Position numbers and translations under genes: made by a program. This document shows positions 36,245 through 42,358 of a stretch of DNA of 64,000 nucleotides, in pieces. Source of the stretch: Citrobacter sp. 18056 (lineage in GTDB: Bacteria > Pseudomonadota > Gammaproteobacteria > Enterobacterales > Enterobacteriaceae); contig CACSJR010000007.1 in assembly GCA_902706235.1 (NCBI GenBank), positions 124,001 through 188,000 of the forward strand, given 5' to 3'. The notes beneath the pieces were generated by a model. The model had not been told where the DNA came from. It ran no database searches and saw only the letters and a program-made list of their open reading frames with translations. Each line of letters begins with the position of its first letter. The first letter of the stretch is position 1.

Positions 36245-36314
36245 AAATGGCAAGGTAAGTCCTATGCCACAGAGACGGCACAACATCATAAGATTGACCG
36301 ACGGGAGCTTTACC

Positions 36315-37046
36315 ATGAAGAAACTTATTCTGGCAGCGCTGCTTGCCACCTTCGCCACAGGCGCGGCTGCGGCAGAGAAAATCAGCTTTGGCGTATCCGC
36401 CACCTATCCACCGTTTGAATCCCTTGATGCCAATAACCAGATTGCCGGTTTTGATATCGATCTGGCCAAAGCCTTATGCAAACAAATGCAGGCGGAATGC
36501 ACCTTCACCAACCACGCGTTTGACAGCCTGATCCCGTCGCTGAAATTCAAAAAATATGACGCGGTGATCTCCGGTATGGACATCACACCAGAGCGCAGCA
36601 AACAAGTGACGTTCACCGACCCGTACTACGCCAACTCGGCGCTGGTGATTGCGAAAAAGGGCGAGTTCACCTCTTTTGAGCAGCTGAAAGGCAAACGTAT
36701 CGGCATGGAAAACGGCACCACGCATCAGAAATACTTGCAGGATAAGCACCCGGAAGTGAAAACCGTGGCCTATGACAGCTACCAGAATGCGATCATCGAC
36801 CTGAAAAATGGCCGTATCGACGGTGTGTTTGGCGACACGGCAGTGGTCAATGAATGGCTGAAAACCAACCCGCAGCTGGGTGTCGCAACGCCAAAAGTGA
36901 CCGATCCGCAGTACTTCGGCACTGGCCTTGGGATTGCCGTGCGTCCGGATAACAAGGCGCTGCTGGAAAAACTGAACGGCGCGCTGAAAGCCATTAAAGC
37001 CGACGGGACGTACCAGAAAATCAGCACTCAGTGGTTCCCGCAATAA
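36315..37046 (+). CDS. artJ: ArtJ, arginine-specific periplasmic binding protein
   Basis: High-affinity arginine-binding protein of the Art system, made from its own promoter. 243 residues from the ATG at 36315 (MKKLILAALLATFATGAAA signal peptide). SBP_bac_3 fold, close paralogue of ArtI. The frame is open upstream through the ARG boxes, which argues against the earlier ATG at 36228. A strong terminator follows. Confidence 0.95.
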   Translation: MKKLILAALLATFATGAAAAEKISFGVSATYPPFESLDANNQIAGFDIDLAKALCKQMQAECTFTNHAFDSLIPSLKFKKYDAVISGMDITPERSKQVTFTDPYYANSALVIAKKGEFTSFEQLKGKRIGMENGTTHQKYLQDKHPEVKTVAYDSYQNAIIDLKNGRIDGVFGDTAVVNEWLKTNPQLGVATPKVTDPQYFGTGLGIAVRPDNKALLEKLNGALKAIKADGTYQKISTQWFPQ

Positions 37047-37110: not shown

Positions 37111-38583
37111 TTAGAGCGGCACGTAAAAGCGGAAACACGCTCCCGGTGTCACATCCATCAAACGAATGCCGCCGCCGTGCAATTCCAGCATCCGGCGCAC
37201 AATAAGCAGTCCCAGTCCGCCGCGATCTTCACGCGCGCTTCGAGCGTTGAGCGCCGAAGGACGCTGGAATAGCTGTTCGCGCAACGCCTGCTCAATGCCC
37301 GGCCCGCTGTCCGCGACTTCCACCTGCAGCTGGGCGTTTTCCTGCCATATGCGAAGCTGAATAGTGCCGCCGACCGGGGTGTGGCGCACCGCGTTGTCCA
37401 GCAAATTGGTCACCACGCGCTCAATCATCGACACGTCGGCATTCACCAGCGGTAGTGAACGCGGCATTTCCACCTGCAGTTTTAACTGTCGCGTTTCGAT
37501 GGCCAGGTCGAATTTTTGCGCCACGTCCTGAATCAGTTCGCCGATGGCAAATCGTTCCAGTTGCGGCTTGATGCCGCCGTGCTCAAGTTTCGCTAACTCA
37601 AACAGCTGTTGCGACAGATGCCGCACTTTGTGCCCCTGACGAAGCGCAATCGCCAGATACTGACGGTTATCCTCTGGCGACAGCGTGTCGGCTTTCATCG
37701 ACAATGTTTCCAGATAACCCAGCAGTGAGGTCAGCGGCGTACGCAAATCATGGGAGATGTTGGCGATAAATTCGCGGCGCTGGCGATCGCTGTCAGAAAG
37801 TTGATCCCACTGGCTGGCAATTTTGCGCGCCAACTCGATAAAGGTGTTGTGCAGAATAGCCACTTCGTTGGCCGGTTCAGTTTCCGGCGTTTGCTGCGCC
37901 AGCTGTTTGATGGCGCTAATGCTGTCCTGATCCAGACCACGCACGTCCGCCGTCAGCTGTTTCACCGGACGCGTCACCCAGTACCAGACCATCACGCCCG
38001 CCAGCAAACCAAACAGCGCCACCAAAAGCAGCGACCACAGTACCGTGCTCCACAGCGCTTTCTGCCAGGCGCTGTCGGAAAGCGCGTTGAGATCTTCGCC
38101 CTGCAAAATAATGTACAGATAGCAGTGCAGTTCGCCGTTGAATCTTACCGGCGCAACGCTGAACACTTTTTCTTTATCCAGACTGCGCGGATCGTCACCA
38201 AAAATAGGCCACGCTGCGCCGCCGAGGAAAGTCTGCAATGGCGCGATGTCGATTTTCTGCCGCTTCACATGGCCCGCTGGCGCGGCGTCGGCCAGCAATT
38301 CCCCTTCGGGTGAGACCAGATACAGCTCCACGCTCGGGTTAAGCGTCATCAGCCGGGTAAATAACATTTGCAGCGTCTGGCGGTTCACGTCGCCCTGTTT
38401 ATCCAGCAGCGGCTCGCTGTTAACGATCTGCTGTGCCAGCCCGGCGGACAAACGTTGCACCATCGCGCTACCGTACTGGCTGGTGCTGTAAAGCTGCACG
38501 CTGCATGCCGCCACCGCGCAGAGCAGCAAGATTGCGGTAAAGACCAGCGTCAACCGCTGGCTGAGGCTGAGGCGGCGGATCAT
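37111..38583 (-). CDS. sensor histidine kinase of an accessory two-component system
   Basis: 490-residue membrane kinase. Transmembrane helices at about 12-31 and 178-202 flank a 145-residue periplasmic sensor domain that I do not recognise. Then HAMP, a HisKA dimerisation domain with phospho-acceptor His278 (FIANISHDLRTPLTSL), and an ATPase domain with N-box NLLDNAVRHT, DSGPGIE and GGLGLLIVRRM. The start overlaps the end of the regulator gene by four bases, so the two are translationally coupled. Not present here in E. coli K-12. The divergent redox genes at 39442-41184 are the likely targets. The layout recalls HprSR beside msrPQ. Confidence 0.9.
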   Translation of the reverse strand: MIRRLSLSQRLTLVFTAILLLCAVAACSVQLYSTSQYGSAMVQRLSAGLAQQIVNSEPLLDKQGDVNRQTLQMLFTRLMTLNPSVELYLVSPEGELLADAAPAGHVKRQKIDIAPLQTFLGGAAWPIFGDDPRSLDKEKVFSVAPVRFNGELHCYLYIILQGEDLNALSDSAWQKALWSTVLWSLLLVALFGLLAGVMVWYWVTRPVKQLTADVRGLDQDSISAIKQLAQQTPETEPANEVAILHNTFIELARKIASQWDQLSDSDRQRREFIANISHDLRTPLTSLLGYLETLSMKADTLSPEDNRQYLAIALRQGHKVRHLSQQLFELAKLEHGGIKPQLERFAIGELIQDVAQKFDLAIETRQLKLQVEMPRSLPLVNADVSMIERVVTNLLDNAVRHTPVGGTIQLRIWQENAQLQVEVADSGPGIEQALREQLFQRPSALNARSAREDRGGLGLLIVRRMLELHGGGIRLMDVTPGACFRFYVPL

Positions 38584-39302
38584 ATCGCGTGCTCCGTTTT
38601 CTCACTGGCGAACTTATAACCTTTCCCCCACACCGTCAGGATAATTTCCGGCTCGGCGGGGTCGCGCTCGATTTTGATGCGCAGGCGGTTGATATGGGTG
38701 TTGACGGTGTGCTCGTAGCCTTCATGCTGATAACCCCAGACGCGGTCCAGCAGTGACAGACGCGAAAACACTTCGCCGGGATGGCGGGCAAACCAGTACA
38801 GCAGATCGAACTCGCGCGGCGTCAGCTCGATAATGTCCCCGCGCAGGCGCACTTCGCGGCTCAACGGATCAATGTTCAGCCCGTGACAGGCGATGTGCCC
38901 GCCTTCCATGCGAATGTTCTGCCCCATCGCCTCCTGGCGACGAAACAGCGCTTTCACGCGCGCAATCAGCTCAAGCACCGAAAACGGTTTGGGCAGATAG
39001 TCATCGGCCCCCATTTCGAGGCCCAGCACGCGGTGCGTCTCACTGGTTCGCGCGCTGATGATGATCACCGGCAGGTAGCGCGTCATCTGACGAATGCGGC
39101 GGCAAATCTCCAGGCCGTCGACGCCGGGCAACATTAAATCGAGGATAACGGCATCCCAGACCTGTTTTTCCAGCTGAACCAGCGCCTGATGGCCATCCGC
39201 TTCGTGGACAATCTGGTAACCCTCATCCTGCAGGTTTAGCCGCAGCAAGGTCGCGATATCCTGATCGTCTTCCACCAGCAGTATTTTCTTTGGGTTATTC
39301 AT
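38580..39302 (-). CDS. OmpR-family response regulator
   Basis: 240 residues. Receiver domain with acidic pocket (VEDD), phospho-acceptor Asp55 (ILDLMLPG), switch Thr/Ser (ISART) and Lys in YLPKPF. C-terminal winged helix of the Trans_reg_C type (LTPREFDLLYWFARHPGEVFSR...VNTHINRLRIKIE...VWGKGYKF). First gene of the regulator-kinase pair and divergent from the cytochrome b gene across 139 bases. Confidence 0.92.
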   Translation of the reverse strand: MNNPKKILLVEDDQDIATLLRLNLQDEGYQIVHEADGHQALVQLEKQVWDAVILDLMLPGVDGLEICRRIRQMTRYLPVIIISARTSETHRVLGLEMGADDYLPKPFSVLELIARVKALFRRQEAMGQNIRMEGGHIACHGLNIDPLSREVRLRGDIIELTPREFDLLYWFARHPGEVFSRLSLLDRVWGYQHEGYEHTVNTHINRLRIKIERDPAEPEIILTVWGKGYKFASEKTEHAI

Positions 39303-39441
39303 CGCGTTTCACCAACAGTCTTTTCTCCAAGCTTAACGCAGGCGGGCGCCGCAAGTTATCACATTTTATTTAAACTTCCGTGAGGATGTGGTGATAAGAA
39401 ATCCCGCATGCTGGTGACATGTCATTCACGGAGAGCCGACC
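39303..39441. promoter_or_regulatory. divergent promoter region with an inverted repeat
   Basis: 139 bases between the response regulator and cytochrome b genes. TTATCACAT (39356-39364) and ATGTGGTGATAA (39386-39397) form an inverted repeat with one extra base. This is a candidate binding site for the adjacent OmpR-type regulator. Confidence 0.4.
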
Positions 39442-40041
39442 ATGTCCCGGATGCGTTCCAAAACGATTCACCCGCTCTGGCTGCGCTGCTGCCATTGGGT
39501 TAACGCCATCGCCATCGCGGGCATGATGTTCAGCGGCTGGCGCATTTATAACGCCTCTCCGCTGTTCGGTTTCTCCTTCCCGGCGGAAATCACGCTCGGC
39601 GGCTGGCTCGGCGGCGCATTGCAGTGGCATTTCGCCATGATGTGGGTGCTGGTGATTAACGCCACCGTCTATTTGTCGCTCGGCATTATCAGCGGCCATT
39701 TCAAACGTAAATTCTTCCCGCTGTCGCTGCGTGAATTATTCAATGACCTGCAACAGGCGCTGCGCGGCAAACTTCAGCATGCCGACCTCAGCCATTACAA
39801 CATGGTGCAAAAGCTGGCCTACGGCGGCGTAATTCTGCTGGGCATCGGGCTGGTGTTGTCCGGCCTGGTGCTGTGGAAATCGGTTCAGTTTTCCCTGCTG
39901 CGGGAGCTGCTTGGCGGCTACGAAGCCGCGCGTTATATCCACTTTTTCTGTATGAGCGCCATGGCGTTGTTCGTGGTTATCCATTTGCTGATGGTGCTGC
40001 TGGTGCCACGTACGCTGCTCGCCATGCTACGGGGCCGTTAA
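39442..40041 (+). CDS. membrane cytochrome b (b561 / Ni-hydrogenase cyt b type)
   Basis: 199-residue integral membrane protein with about four to five helices. Histidines at 18, 63, 167 and 181 lie in or next to helices (LRCCHWVN, QWHFAMMW, YIHFFCMS, VVIHLLM) and fit two b-heme sites. This is the cytochrome b561 / Ni_hydr_CYTB superfamily, not the ferric-reductase-like fold of MsrQ. Nine bases before the molybdoenzyme gene. Probable role: electron transfer from quinol to that enzyme (inference). Confidence 0.85.
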   Translation: MSRMRSKTIHPLWLRCCHWVNAIAIAGMMFSGWRIYNASPLFGFSFPAEITLGGWLGGALQWHFAMMWVLVINATVYLSLGIISGHFKRKFFPLSLRELFNDLQQALRGKLQHADLSHYNMVQKLAYGGVILLGIGLVLSGLVLWKSVQFSLLRELLGGYEAARYIHFFCMSAMALFVVIHLLMVLLVPRTLLAMLRGR

Positions 40042-40050
40042 GGAGAACAG

Positions 40051-40821
40051 ATGAAAAAGCCCGGTTTTCTTTCCGACAGTGACGCCCGCGACCTGGTGAA
40101 GGACGCAGAAAAGTTACTCAGCCCGGACCGCCGACGCGTGCTGCGCCAGGGGCTGACCCTCGGCGGCATCATGATGCTGACCGGTTGCGACATCAGCGAT
40201 AACGAAAGCGTCGAGACTGCGCTGTCCCGCATGTCCCGCTTTAACGACCGGGTGCAGGGTTTTCTGTTCAGCCACCGCAATCTGGCACCTGAATATAAAG
40301 CGTCCGAGATAACCCGTCCGTTCCCGTTTAACGCCTTTTATGGCTGGGATGACATTCCACAGATTGATGGTCGTGATTTCCAGCTGGAAATAAGGGGCCT
40401 GGTGCGCGACACCAAACGCTGGACGCTGCCGGAGCTGTATCACATGCAGCAGGTCAGCCAAATCACCCGCCATATTTGCGTTGAAGGCTGGAGCGCCATC
40501 GGCAAATGGGGCGGCGTGCCGTTCGCTCATTTCTTACAGCTGATTGGTGCGGATATGCGCGCGAAATATATCAGCTTCCGCTGTGCGGATGATTATTACA
40601 CCAGCATTGATATGGCCACTGCATTACATCCGCAAACCCTGCTGGCCCTGACCTGGGATAACAAAATTCTCCCTCCGGAATACGGCTATCCGATGAAAAT
40701 CCGTATTCCGACCAAGCTCGGCTACAAAAACCCAAAACACGTTTTATCCATCGAAGTCACCAATCGTTTCCCGGGCGGTTACTGGGAAGACCAGGGTTAC
40801 AACTGGTTTGGTGGCAGTTAA
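40051..40821 (+). CDS. sulfite-oxidase-family molybdopterin oxidoreductase, putative Tat lipoprotein
   Basis: 256 residues of the YedY/MsrP-like oxidoreductase molybdopterin-binding fold (PF00174). The Mo-binding Cys is probably Cys143 in RHICVEGWSAIGKWGG, matching the MsrP motif RMRCVEAWS. The N-terminus has a twin-arginine pattern (RRRVLRQGLTLGG, 27-39) running into a lipobox LTGC (Cys46). This predicts Tat export followed by lipid anchoring with Asp at +2, the inner-membrane retention signal. The ATG follows AAGGAGA and is coupled to the cytochrome b gene. It is much shorter than MsrP (334 residues). Substrate unknown; sulfoxides are a reasonable guess. Confidence 0.87.
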   Translation: MKKPGFLSDSDARDLVKDAEKLLSPDRRRVLRQGLTLGGIMMLTGCDISDNESVETALSRMSRFNDRVQGFLFSHRNLAPEYKASEITRPFPFNAFYGWDDIPQIDGRDFQLEIRGLVRDTKRWTLPELYHMQQVSQITRHICVEGWSAIGKWGGVPFAHFLQLIGADMRAKYISFRCADDYYTSIDMATALHPQTLLALTWDNKILPPEYGYPMKIRIPTKLGYKNPKHVLSIEVTNRFPGGYWEDQGYNWFGGS

Positions 40822-40860
40822 ACCCAGAAGCACTTCACAACGTAAAAATGAGGAATTCCC

Positions 40861-41184
40861 ATGAAAAAATTAATGCTTGCAGCTGCTGCCTTCTCTGCCC
40901 TGGTGATGTTTAACGTTCAGGCCGCCGACAGCATGAGCAAAGACAGTATAGCGAAAGACAATATGTCGATGTCCCACGACGGTATGGCCAAAGACGGGAT
41001 GTCAAAACCCCACGATAAAATGTGCAAAGACGGCATGTGCAAGGATGGGATGAAGAAAGACGGGATGAAGAAGGACGCCATGAAAAAAGACAGCATGGGC
41101 AAAATGGACAACATGTCGAAAGACGGCATGAAAAAGGATGAGATGAAGAAAGATGAGATGAAAAAAGAGAGTATGTCTAAATAA
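40861..41184 (+). CDS. methionine-rich MxKDx-repeat periplasmic protein
   Basis: 107 residues: signal peptide (to about VQA, residue 21-22), then a low-complexity chain built from pentapeptides of the type M-K-K-D-G. The mature part has 17 Met in about 85 residues, with many Lys and Asp, two Cys (MCKDGMCKDG) and two His. This matches the pentapeptide MXKDX repeat family (TIGR02953), of unknown function. GAGGAA precedes the ATG, 39 bases after the molybdoenzyme gene. Met, Cys and His could bind Cu(I) or act as an oxidant sink; both are inference. Confidence 0.85.
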   Translation: MKKLMLAAAAFSALVMFNVQAADSMSKDSIAKDNMSMSHDGMAKDGMSKPHDKMCKDGMCKDGMKKDGMKKDAMKKDSMGKMDNMSKDGMKKDEMKKDEMKKESMSK

Positions 41185-41194
41185 GCTGGCTGGC

Positions 41195-41229
41195 AGGCCG
41201 GGCGTGGCGTAGTCGCCGCCCGGCCTCAT
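41195..41229. terminator. bidirectional terminator/REP-like hairpin before rlmC
   Basis: Perfect arms AGGCCGGGCG / CGCCCGGCCT (41195-41204 and 41217-41226) followed by CATTTT, between convergent genes. Confidence 0.75.
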
Positions 41230-41230
41230 T

Positions 41231-42358
41231 TTAACGGTGAATCAACAGCGTCAGTACTTCGTAATGCGCAGTGTGAGGGAACATATCAAACAGCTGCACG
41301 CGTGATACCCGGTACGCCGGCAGATAGCTGAAATCTTTCGCCATCGACTGCGCGTTGCAGCTGGAATAGATAATAAACGGCGGCGCCATGTCGCTGAGGT
41401 AGTCGCATAACGCTTTGCCAATCCCACGGCGCGGCGGATTCACCAGCACCAGCTCAGGCACGCTACCCTGATCGGTCGCAAACTGCGTGGAGTCGAGCGC
41501 CTGAAAATGCAGATTTTGTAGTCCCAGTTCCGCAGCCGACTGCTTTGCACAGGCAATGGCTTCCGCTGAGATTTCTATTCCGGTCAGCTGCATTTCTGGC
41601 GTGGCGCAGTGCAACCCAAAACCGCCCACGCCGCAAAAGAGATCCCACATATGCTGAACCGGTAAGGCTCGCACCCAATCGCGCGCGGTGGCATACAATT
41701 CACTCGCCACCGTCGGGTTAGTCTGGAAGAAACTTTGCGGACGGATCCACAGCGGCACGTTGTTGAAACGCTCGGCCAGCGCCTGCTGGTCAGTGAGGAA
41801 AATCTCCTGCTCGCCTTCCATGATTGCCATGTGCACCGGCTGGATATTCACTGAAATTACTTTCAGCTGCGGCAACTGAGCCTGTAATGACGGCAACGCC
41901 GCGCGCAGTTGTTCCAGTTTGGCATCAGAGCGCAGAACAAAGCGCAGCATCATTCCGCCATCGAGCTGGCTTTCGGTCAGCAGCAGATATTTCAGCTCCC
42001 CACGCTTACGCGCGACGTTATACGGCGTCAGGCCCGCGCGGGCGATAAACGGTTTCAGGGCGGTAAATACCGGGGCAAACGAGGCGGGATATAGCGGGCA
42101 GTCGCATAAATCTTCCGGCGTGCCGTCGCGATGCAGCATCCCGAGCAGCGGTTTTTCGACGCTGCCGCTGACGACCATTTTGGCTTTGTTACGAAAACCC
42201 ATTTCCGGGCCGCTAACCGGTGCGCACCACTCTTCTACCGTCGAGAACGACAGCAGTTGCTGAAGATCCGCCATTTTGGCGGCAAGCTGTTGGGATACCG
42301 GCTGTTCGAGCCACTGACAGGAGCGACAGCGTCCGGCATCATAGAGTGCGCACTGCAT
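41231..42358 (-). CDS. rlmC: RlmC, 23S rRNA m5U747 methyltransferase
   Basis: SAM-dependent methyltransferase that modifies U747 of 23S rRNA (formerly RumB). 375 residues, the E. coli length. Iron-sulfur cysteines Cys3, Cys11 and Cys14 plus one in [12 protein letters not shown] motif [16 protein letters not shown]; catalytic Cys in YSSCNAQS. Confidence 0.96.

What the first reader, a model, noticed from the sequence alone, without database searches (positions are those of the whole stretch)
37111..41184. Five-gene redox island: two-component system, cytochrome b, Mo-enzyme and Met-rich protein
Between artJ and rlmC, adjacent in E. coli, lies a kinase-regulator pair divergent from a cytochrome b561-type protein, an MsrP-like molybdoenzyme and an MxKDx-repeat protein. 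The logic matches HprSR-MsrPQ, which repairs periplasmic methionine sulfoxide. The heme subunit is of another family and the Met-rich protein has no counterpart there. I infer an envelope redox system in which the 17-Met protein is substrate, oxidant sink or Cu(I) ligand for the enzyme pair.
Basis: partly seen in the sequence, partly recalled or inferred. Interest (0 to 1): 0.8.

Follow-up and report, generated by a model that had tools for sequence, protein, structure and literature searches.

The report
Methionine-sulfoxide repair cluster with Met-rich protein
A sensor-regulator pair faces an operon for a membrane haem protein, a molybdenum enzyme and a methionine-packed periplasmic protein that most likely mop up oxidants and repair oxidised methionine in the cell envelope; a close relative is already published from uropathogenic E. 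coli, while the shared DNA box that ties this operon to two unrelated methionine-repair systems in other bacteria was not found in the papers searched.

Summary
In detail: five intact genes lie at 37111-41184 between artJ and rlmC. New here: (1) MxKDx proteins over the family cut-off occur only with this Mo-enzyme family (21 of 21 genomes; MsrP control 11 of 21), though 13 of 15 genomes with below-cut-off matches lack the enzyme. (2) The Mo enzyme is a predicted Tat-exported lipoprotein. (3) A 33-bp box precedes the operon in 60 of 60 regions. Where the regulator is not adjacent it is elsewhere in 26 of 27 genomes: in 20 of 20 Pseudomonas facing predicted exported MsrB, in one Citrobacter facing MsrPQ. 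All 13 perfect boxes in 36 chosen genomes face a methionine-sulfoxide reductase operon. MetO repair is likely; MxKDx as recyclable oxidant sink plausible; Cu(I) ligand unsupported.

The parts
37111..38583 (-). OrhK-type sensor histidine kinase (two hydrophobic stretches 11-29 and 181-199 around a periplasmic domain); the only Met/Cys invariant in the periplasmic part is Met79 (codon 38347-38349)
   Evidence: HisKA/HATPase_c; 70% identity to the kinase of the E. coli ATCC 25922 copy; Met79 in 95 of 95 distinct aligned kinases
38580..39302 (-). OrhR-type OmpR-family response regulator
   Evidence: PF00072 + PF00486; 81% identity to the ATCC 25922 regulator, which bears the same accession (WP_001066996.1) as CFT073 C_RS16925, orhR
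39353..39385 (+). 33-bp conserved putative OrhR operator AAGTTATCACATTTTATTTAAACTTCCGTGAGG (TCAC-N17-GTGA)
   Evidence: PWM site; block present in 60 of 60 intergenic regions; single match in the own genome
39442..40041 (+). b561-type (Ni_hydr_CYTB) membrane cytochrome, putative quinol-oxidising haem subunit
   Evidence: PF01292; His18, 63, 113, 167, 181 in 81 of 81 rows
40051..40821 (+). MsrP/SUOX-fold molybdoenzyme, probable MetO reductase
   Evidence: PF00174; Cys143 in 81 of 81 rows; Foldseek best hits 1xdy/1xdq (YedY) E about 1e-12
40129..40188 (+). Tat signal (RR, residues 27-28) running into lipobox LTGC-D (Cys46, Asp at +2): predicted Tat-exported, inner-membrane-retained lipoprotein
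   Evidence: R27, R28, C46 invariant in alignment A2, C46 in 81 of 81 rows; lipobox variants; the Asp+2 retention rule is recalled
40861..41184 (+). MxKDx Met-rich periplasmic protein (TIGR02953), 17 Met in 85 mature residues, with a CKDGMCKDG motif
   Evidence: two or more Cys in 33 of 47 Enterobacterales relatives listed, none in the 10 Achromobacter ones
41195..41226 (+). GC-rich hairpin followed by TCATTTT: probable operon terminator
   Evidence: RNAfold -26.9 kcal/mol on the stretch; not reported by the consensus scanner

Best explanation
This is an OrhKR-controlled methionine-sulfoxide (MetO) repair and oxidant-scavenging operon of the cell envelope. OrhK senses oxidant outside the inner membrane and phosphorylates OrhR (phosphotransfer and response to tert-butyl hydroperoxide were reported in UPEC, not tested here). 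OrhR binds the 33-bp box 57-89 bases before the cytochrome gene and switches on cytochrome b, Mo enzyme and MxKDx (operon and promoter binding reported in UPEC; the box as the exact site is inferred here). The b561 protein takes electrons from the quinol pool and hands them to the Mo enzyme, which is held at the outer face of the inner membrane by a Tat-lipoprotein anchor (inferred from sequence). The enzyme reduces MetO in envelope proteins and, above all, in the MxKDx protein, whose many methionines react with HOCl or peroxide first and are then regenerated (inferred; proposed by others for MrpX and BcrX).
For: Gene-for-gene match to UPEC c3564-c3568, where operon, OrhR binding, peroxide induction and peroxide resistance through c3566/c3567 were reported (passages of PMC8550376; identities; orhR accession link). 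MxKDx over the family cut-off only in genomes with this Mo-enzyme family: 21 of 21 vs 38 of 278 others, Fisher 6e-17, 13 genera; control MsrP 11 of 21, p 0.15. In the order, the same 7 of 295 genomes carry MxKDx over cut-off and the close Mo enzyme, and all 7 also have MsrP, so it is an added system. Same regulator and box in front of undisputed MetO-reductase families: 20 of 20 Pseudomonas genomes have OrhR beside MsrB, one Citrobacter beside MsrPQ; 13 of 13 perfect boxes in 36 chosen genomes face a MetO-reductase operon, 5 of them (MsrB, MsrPQ) not used to derive the box. Fold nearest to YedY/MsrP.
Against: No activity on MetO was measured for this branch; in the UPEC passages read I saw no result for c3568 alone. 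Below the MxKDx cut-off the link weakens: 13 of 15 phylum genomes with such matches lack the Mo enzyme, and the 6 below-cut-off genomes of the order lack it too. Nine of 18 over-cut-off MxKDx loci outside the order are not linked to the enzyme. Edwardsiella (3 genomes) has OrhR and the operon but no box. Five genomes keep orhKR by rlmC without the operon there and without a perfect box (one of them, G566, has the operon elsewhere with a weak box). Of five class-level orhRK-MsrB loci only two show the box by PWM. The structure model is moderate (pLDDT 70).
Confidence: 0.66

Rival explanations
1. Pure repair: the enzyme pair repairs general envelope proteins as MsrPQ does, and MxKDx is a passenger, a chaperone-like disordered protein or an oxidation sensor, not a sink.
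For: In UPEC resistance was assigned to c3566/c3567; cytochrome-Mo pairs without an adjacent MxKDx are common: all 22 loci that I fetched for Mo-enzyme hits away from MxKDx have the pair, and the Met-rich ORFs flagged there are not MxKDx proteins.
Against: Over-cut-off MxKDx occurs in 21 of 21 cases with the Mo enzyme while the enzyme often occurs without MxKDx: the one-way dependence expected of a client or substrate; Met richness is kept while length and sequence drift.
Confidence: 0.2
2. Copper/silver handling: MxKDx is a Cu(I) ligand like Met-rich copper proteins and the redox pair keeps it or copper reduced.
For: Met- and Cys-bearing MCKDGMCKDG motif in the window protein; MsrP in E. coli repairs the copper chaperone CusF and msrPQ is under CusSR in copper stress (passages of PMC9302797); four paralogous pairs carry CopR/HprR-type regulators.
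Against: OrhR is outside the CopR/CusR subfamily (168.6 vs 279.2 bits); the Cys pair is missing in the 10 Achromobacter proteins and in part of the Enterobacterales; the 13 perfect OrhR boxes face MetO reductases, none a copper operon. I did not search systematically for copper genes near the loci.
Confidence: 0.07
3. The Mo enzyme acts on another substrate (sulfite or a small sulfoxide) as a respiratory reductase or sulfite dehydrogenase.
For: Sulfite dehydrogenases and oxidases fill much of the Foldseek list; SorA and SoxC models hit weakly.
Against: Best sequence and fold matches are MsrP; shared regulator and box with MsrPQ and MsrB; Met-rich partner.
Confidence: 0.07

Closest known systems
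OrhK/OrhR-c3566-c3567-c3568 of E. coli CFT073 (PMC8550376)
   Same: Same five genes, order and divergence; regulator orthologous; operator block conserved in the ATCC 25922 copy, whose regulator equals CFT073 orhR
   Different: Window copy sits between artJ and rlmC, not on a pathogenicity island; hairpin terminator after MxKDx; 70/81/77/47% identity of kinase/regulator/Mo enzyme/MxKDx to the ATCC 25922 copy
MrpX-YedYZ with SigF/NrsF of Azospira suillum (Melnyk 2015, not held; via PMC8315932 and PMC4623255) and BcrXQP with BcrS/AbcS (PMC8315932)
   Same: Met-rich periplasmic protein with a Mo-type MetO reductase system, oxidant-induced
   Different: Sigma/anti-sigma control instead of a two-component system
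MsrPQ with HprSR of E. coli K-12
   Same: Two-component system beside a MsrP-fold Mo enzyme with a membrane haem subunit
   Different: MsrQ-type subunit is PF01794 (Citrobacter MsrQ), here PF01292 without significant similarity to K-12 MsrQ; Mo enzyme 29% identical over 144 residues; lipoprotein signal; MxKDx added; regulator 38% identical to HprR
MsrB-(DsbD-like)-MsrA operons beside orhRK in Pseudomonas
   Same: Same regulator OrhR and same box
   Different: Thiol-based MsrB/MsrA, with a thioredoxin/DsbD-like membrane protein between them in some loci; no Mo, no haem

Membership tests
OrhKR-c3566-c3568 | Kinase-regulator pair divergent from cytochrome b, MsrP-like Mo enzyme, small Met-rich protein | tested here: met
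   same order in an E. coli plasmid and in ATCC 25922
OrhKR-c3566-c3568 | Orthologous regulator and conserved promoter block | tested here: met
   81% identity; block in 60 of 60 intergenic regions incl. the ATCC 25922 copy
OrhKR-c3566-c3568 | Induction by peroxide and peroxide resistance | not testable with these tools
   reported in UPEC only (PMC8550376)
MrpX / MxKDx (TIGR02953) | Protein over the family cut-off | tested here: met
   78.8 bits vs 41
MrpX-YedY (Azospira type) | SigF/NrsF control | tested here: not met
   two-component system in place; SigF/NrsF found beside another MxKDx gene, L143
MsrPQ | MsrP equivalog score | tested here: not met
   NF003767 80.1 bits vs 207
MsrPQ | MsrQ-type (PF01794) haem subunit | tested here: not met
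   PF01292 instead; no significant BLAST match to K-12 MsrQ
MsrPQ | MsrP/SUOX fold with Cys ligand to Mo | tested here: met
   Cys143 in 81 of 81 rows; Foldseek 1xdy; that this Cys binds Mo is by homology
HprSR | Regulator over the HprR equivalog cut-off | tested here: not met
   155.1 vs 353 bits
CopRS/CusRS copper systems | Regulator over TIGR01387 cut-off | tested here: not met
   168.6 vs 279.2 bits
CopRS/CusRS copper systems | Cu(I) binding by the Met-rich protein | not testable with these tools
   no assay

The most novel reading that the evidence does not exclude
The trio is a respiratory-chain-driven catalytic scavenger: quinol electrons pass through the b561 protein and the membrane-anchored Mo enzyme to MxKDx-MetO, so that a disordered Met polymer turns over as a peroxide/HOCl reductase; and OrhKR is a general envelope methionine-oxidation sensor (perhaps through invariant Met79) that in different bacteria commands three chemically unrelated MetO reductases (Mo/b561 pair, MsrPQ, exported MsrB/MsrA) through one box.
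Probability: 0.4. Interest if true: 0.75.

Novelty: new member of a known kind. Interest (0 to 1): 0.5.

Why it matters
It places the UPEC island system as one branch of a wider chromosomal one, names a likely DNA switch, and ties three unrelated methionine-repair chemistries to one sensor. It makes a standing question testable: is the Met-rich protein a recyclable oxidant sink fed by the respiratory chain?

Tried and rejected
Rejected: (a) 'no counterpart' for the Met-rich protein: MrpX, BcrX, c3568 are counterparts. (b) The published inverted repeat TCACA-N15-TGTGA as the general operator: its right arm TGTGA is in 1 of 60 regions, CGTGA in 57; TCAC-N17-GTGA in 59 of 60. (c) A conserved Cys of the kinase as sensor: Cys154 only 5 of 49, Cys22 31 of 49; Met79 is invariant but so are 21 other periplasmic residues, so weak. 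(d) Phage origin: 2 of 50,697 phage records match at E 1e-5, both under 40% identity, one an annotated YedY in a Salmonella contig. (e) Sigma-70-like promoter by consensus: 0 found, mean 1.6 in shuffles. (f) Melnyk 2015 is not held; what I say of it is recalled or from papers citing it. Led nowhere: terminator-scan hits lie inside genes; Edwardsiella orhKR shows no box and lies by a sugar-binding-type protein gene.

Results against my reading, told in full: the 21-of-21 link holds for MxKDx over the curated cut-off only; of 36 phylum genomes with any match at E 0.001, 15 are below it and 13 of these lack the Mo enzyme, and in the order 6 of 13 are below it and lack the enzyme; L152, L153 and L158 are such Met-rich genes beside OrhR-like two-component genes without the enzyme pair (L153 35.7 and L158 24.9 bits vs 41). 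9 of 18 over-cut-off MxKDx loci outside the order are unlinked to the enzyme. 5 of 27 no-adjacent-regulator loci lack the box (L012, L015, L020, L041, L054) and a sixth, L029, is weak (PWM 30.4). G521 and G452 have the trio without OrhR or box. OrhR also occurs in genomes without the Mo enzyme (e.g. G080, G166, G188, G248). Among class-level orhRK-MsrB loci, L233, L234 and L236 show no box by PWM (L234's genome has a two-mismatch one). Imperfect pattern hits at G267 (one mismatch, genome without OrhR), G080 and G228:C1 (two each) were not examined, and the reversed control pattern hit once in 36 genomes.
Full report
WHAT IS THERE. Five open genes fill 37111-41184 between artJ (36312-37046) and rlmC (41231-42358); in E. 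coli K-12 artJ and rlmC are direct neighbours. Kinase and regulator run leftwards; cytochrome b, Mo enzyme and MxKDx run rightwards with gaps of 9 and 39 bases and end in a GC-rich hairpin (41195-41226). The window's genome is 5.3 Mb, held without a name; its nearest relatives are Enterobacteriaceae.

IDENTITIES. The cytochrome is PF01292 (b561/Ni_hydr_CYTB) and has no significant BLAST match to K-12 MsrQ; the Mo enzyme is 29% identical to K-12 MsrP over 144 residues and scores 80 bits where the MsrP cut-off is 207; the regulator is 38% identical to HprR. The model of the Mo enzyme (pLDDT 70) matches YedY/MsrP 1xdy best, then sulfite dehydrogenases. MxKDx passes TIGR02953 (78.8 vs 41 bits) and has 17 Met in 85 mature residues.

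ALREADY PUBLISHED. UPEC CFT073 c3564-c3568 is the same cluster: TCS OrhK/OrhR, cytochrome B, MsrP-like enzyme, Met-rich peptide; cotranscription, OrhR binding, peroxide induction and peroxide resistance through c3566/c3567 were reported (outline and passages of PMC8550376). The regulator of the ATCC 25922 copy bears the same accession as CFT073 C_RS16925, orhR. Window proteins are 70, 81, 77 and 47% identical to the ATCC 25922 copy (kinase, regulator, Mo enzyme, MxKDx) and 79, 88, 75, 82 and 50% identical to an IncF plasmid copy (kinase, regulator, cytochrome, Mo enzyme, MxKDx). DNA matches occur in 351 of 5426 E. coli genomes, 292 places on chromosomes and 75 on plasmids, and in 229 of 72,556 plasmid records, 68 of them covering at least 80% of the query in one place. 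The paper likened c3566 to MsrQ at 23.1% identity; for the window's homologue the profiles give another family. The sink idea is Melnyk 2015 (MrpX; paper not held) and was repeated for BcrX (passages of PMC8315932).

CO-OCCURRENCE. From the Mo-enzyme side, among the 79 best loci: cytochrome adjacent 79 of 79, MxKDx 78 of 79, divergent regulator 52 of 79, with kinase 50. From the MxKDx side, over 299 genomes sampled in the phylum: 21 have MxKDx over cut-off, 59 have the Mo-enzyme family at E 1e-20; all 21 are among the 59 (Fisher 6e-17; 3e-18 when six weak hits are dropped, leaving 53), while K-12-type MsrP (E 1e-60) is in 11 of the 21 and 118 of 299 (p 0.15). The 21 span 13 genera; p-values ignore kinship. 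Below the cut-off the link is lost: 13 of 15 such genomes lack the enzyme. In 295 genomes of the order, 7 have MxKDx over cut-off (13 at E 0.001) and 10 have the Mo-enzyme family at E 1e-20, 7 of them strongly (460-501 bits for the best copy) and 3 weakly (75-81 bits); the two sets of seven are the same, and all seven also have MsrP. Linkage is looser further out: 9 of 18 over-cut-off MxKDx loci outside the order lie away from the Mo enzyme.

ENZYME CORE AND PARTNERS. In 22 of 22 loci fetched for Mo-enzyme hits away from MxKDx, the cytochrome is still beside it, but the third gene and the regulator change: DUF5666-like (9 of 22; two checked by Pfam fall below its cut-off and a third has no match) or fasciclin (4 of 22) proteins, and in four loci a CopR/HprR-subfamily regulator over its cut-off. 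SigF/NrsF-like genes lie beside or near some other MxKDx genes. Arg27, Arg28 and Cys46 of the Mo enzyme are invariant in alignment A2 and Cys46 is in 81 of 81 rows: a Tat signal ending in a lipobox, with Asp at +2 in the Enterobacterales and Asp, Asn, Ser or Thr elsewhere; by the recalled Lol rule Asp+2 would keep it in the inner membrane.

THE BOX. All 60 regulator-cytochrome intergenic regions examined hold one block, consensus gAGTTaTCACATTTtaTTTAActtTnCGTGAGg (22-33 of 33 identities; best in 1200 mononucleotide shuffles 20; 30 distinct sequences; at least two genomes are in the set twice under different locus names). The 60 are the window, one plasmid copy, ATCC 25922, 51 of the 52 loci with an adjacent regulator (L059's is cut) and six more. 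The repeat published for UPEC is this block with a right arm (TGTGA) seen in 1 of the 60.

A PREDICTION THAT HELD. The block also precedes the cytochrome gene in 22 of 27 loci that lack an adjacent regulator (one of them, L029, weak), which predicts OrhR in trans. OrhR (63-87% identical, one match per genome at E 1e-60) is elsewhere in 26 of those 27 genomes (one of the 26, Rahnella bruchi, is explained by a second full cluster, L196); the 27th, L054's genome, lacks box and regulator. In all 20 Pseudomonas genomes the trans orhRK faces MsrB with a box between; MsrA follows directly in 11 of the 20 three-kb loci, and in two others fetched wider it follows after a thioredoxin/DsbD-like protein (L243, L246). 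Export of MsrB (Tat-like start) is read from the sequences seen (Pfam TAT_signal 20.4 bits vs 22.7). In Citrobacter On2M (L242) orhRK faces authentic MsrPQ with a box between. Genome-wide in 36 genomes chosen by me, 13 perfect boxes (no mismatch at 19 fixed positions) exist and all face such operons: 8 cytochrome-Mo-MxKDx, 4 MsrB, 1 MsrPQ; Citrobacter On2M and three Pseudomonas have exactly two each, one per operon; the 12 genomes without OrhR have no perfect box. The matrix was built from regulator-cytochrome regions only, so the MsrB and MsrPQ sites are independent. Eight imperfect hits: five at such operons (G112, G140, G238, G379, G476), three not examined. Control: OrhR at E 1e-60 is in 26 of 80 genomes; 16 of these are over 60% identical, 10 are 49-57%. 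Of the 16, five sit beside MsrB/MsrA and four sit alone between artJ and rlmC.

HOW IT LIKELY WORKS. Oxidant outside the inner membrane activates OrhK; OrhR-P binds the box; the operon makes a quinol-fed b561 subunit, a membrane-anchored Mo MetO reductase and a Met-rich periplasmic protein. The regulator and box shared with MsrPQ and MsrB/MsrA are evidence, independent of homology, that the unknown pair is a MetO reductase; the one-way dependence of true MxKDx on the enzyme fits a substrate or sink. Reported in UPEC, not tested here: operon, OrhR binding, peroxide response. Inferred: electron path, anchor, box as the exact site, sink. HprS senses through two periplasmic methionines (passages of PMC10151825); OrhK has one invariant periplasmic Met, Met79 (95 of 95), a candidate only.

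EVOLUTION. In a tree of 32 regulators that I selected, the window groups with Enterobacteriaceae copies; the plasmid and island copies of E. coli fall with Citrobacter and Pluralibacter copies (98/93); orhKR alone between artJ and rlmC occurs in four genomes. So the island version is best read as one branch of a chromosomal system, spread or lost piecemeal.

NOVELTY. The window cluster is a new member of a known kind. In the listings of the searches run and the passages read I saw no paper on the box, on OrhR beside MsrPQ or MsrB, or on the lipoprotein; that covers only open-licence full texts.

Noticed in passing
L229, L230, L231, L232; L194: orhKR without the enzyme operon between artJ and rlmC (four genomes) or beside rlmC (one, whose operon lies elsewhere); no perfect box in these five genomes, so the target is unknown.
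   Followed up: partly
L170, L171, L180, L181; L172, L173, L178, L179: Paralogous cytochrome-Mo pairs with CopR/HprR-type two-component systems and DUF5666-like proteins, or with fasciclin proteins, in place of MxKDx.
   Followed up: partly
L129, L131, L133, L134, L135, L137, L139: MxKDx genes away from the Mo enzyme in seven large-genome relatives; TRAP-transporter genes (DctP) lie beside it in the two checked (L129, L134), a ChrR-cupin-like gene in L137.
   Followed up: partly
L152, L153, L158: Met-rich genes, below or near the MxKDx cut-off, beside OrhR-like two-component genes but without the enzyme pair.
   Followed up: partly
L003: A record titled Chryseobacterium sp. 18061 carries this cluster between artJ and rlmC (Mo enzyme 95% identical to the window's); probably an Enterobacteriaceae genome under a wrong name.
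   Followed up: no
L239, L241: More distant OrhR-like regulators (52 and 51% identical) lie near small exported proteins; the one checked (L241) has a Spondin_N match.
   Followed up: no
L164:1149-1747: Cytochrome b gene of the ATCC 25922 copy is annotated as frameshifted; described only.
   Followed up: no
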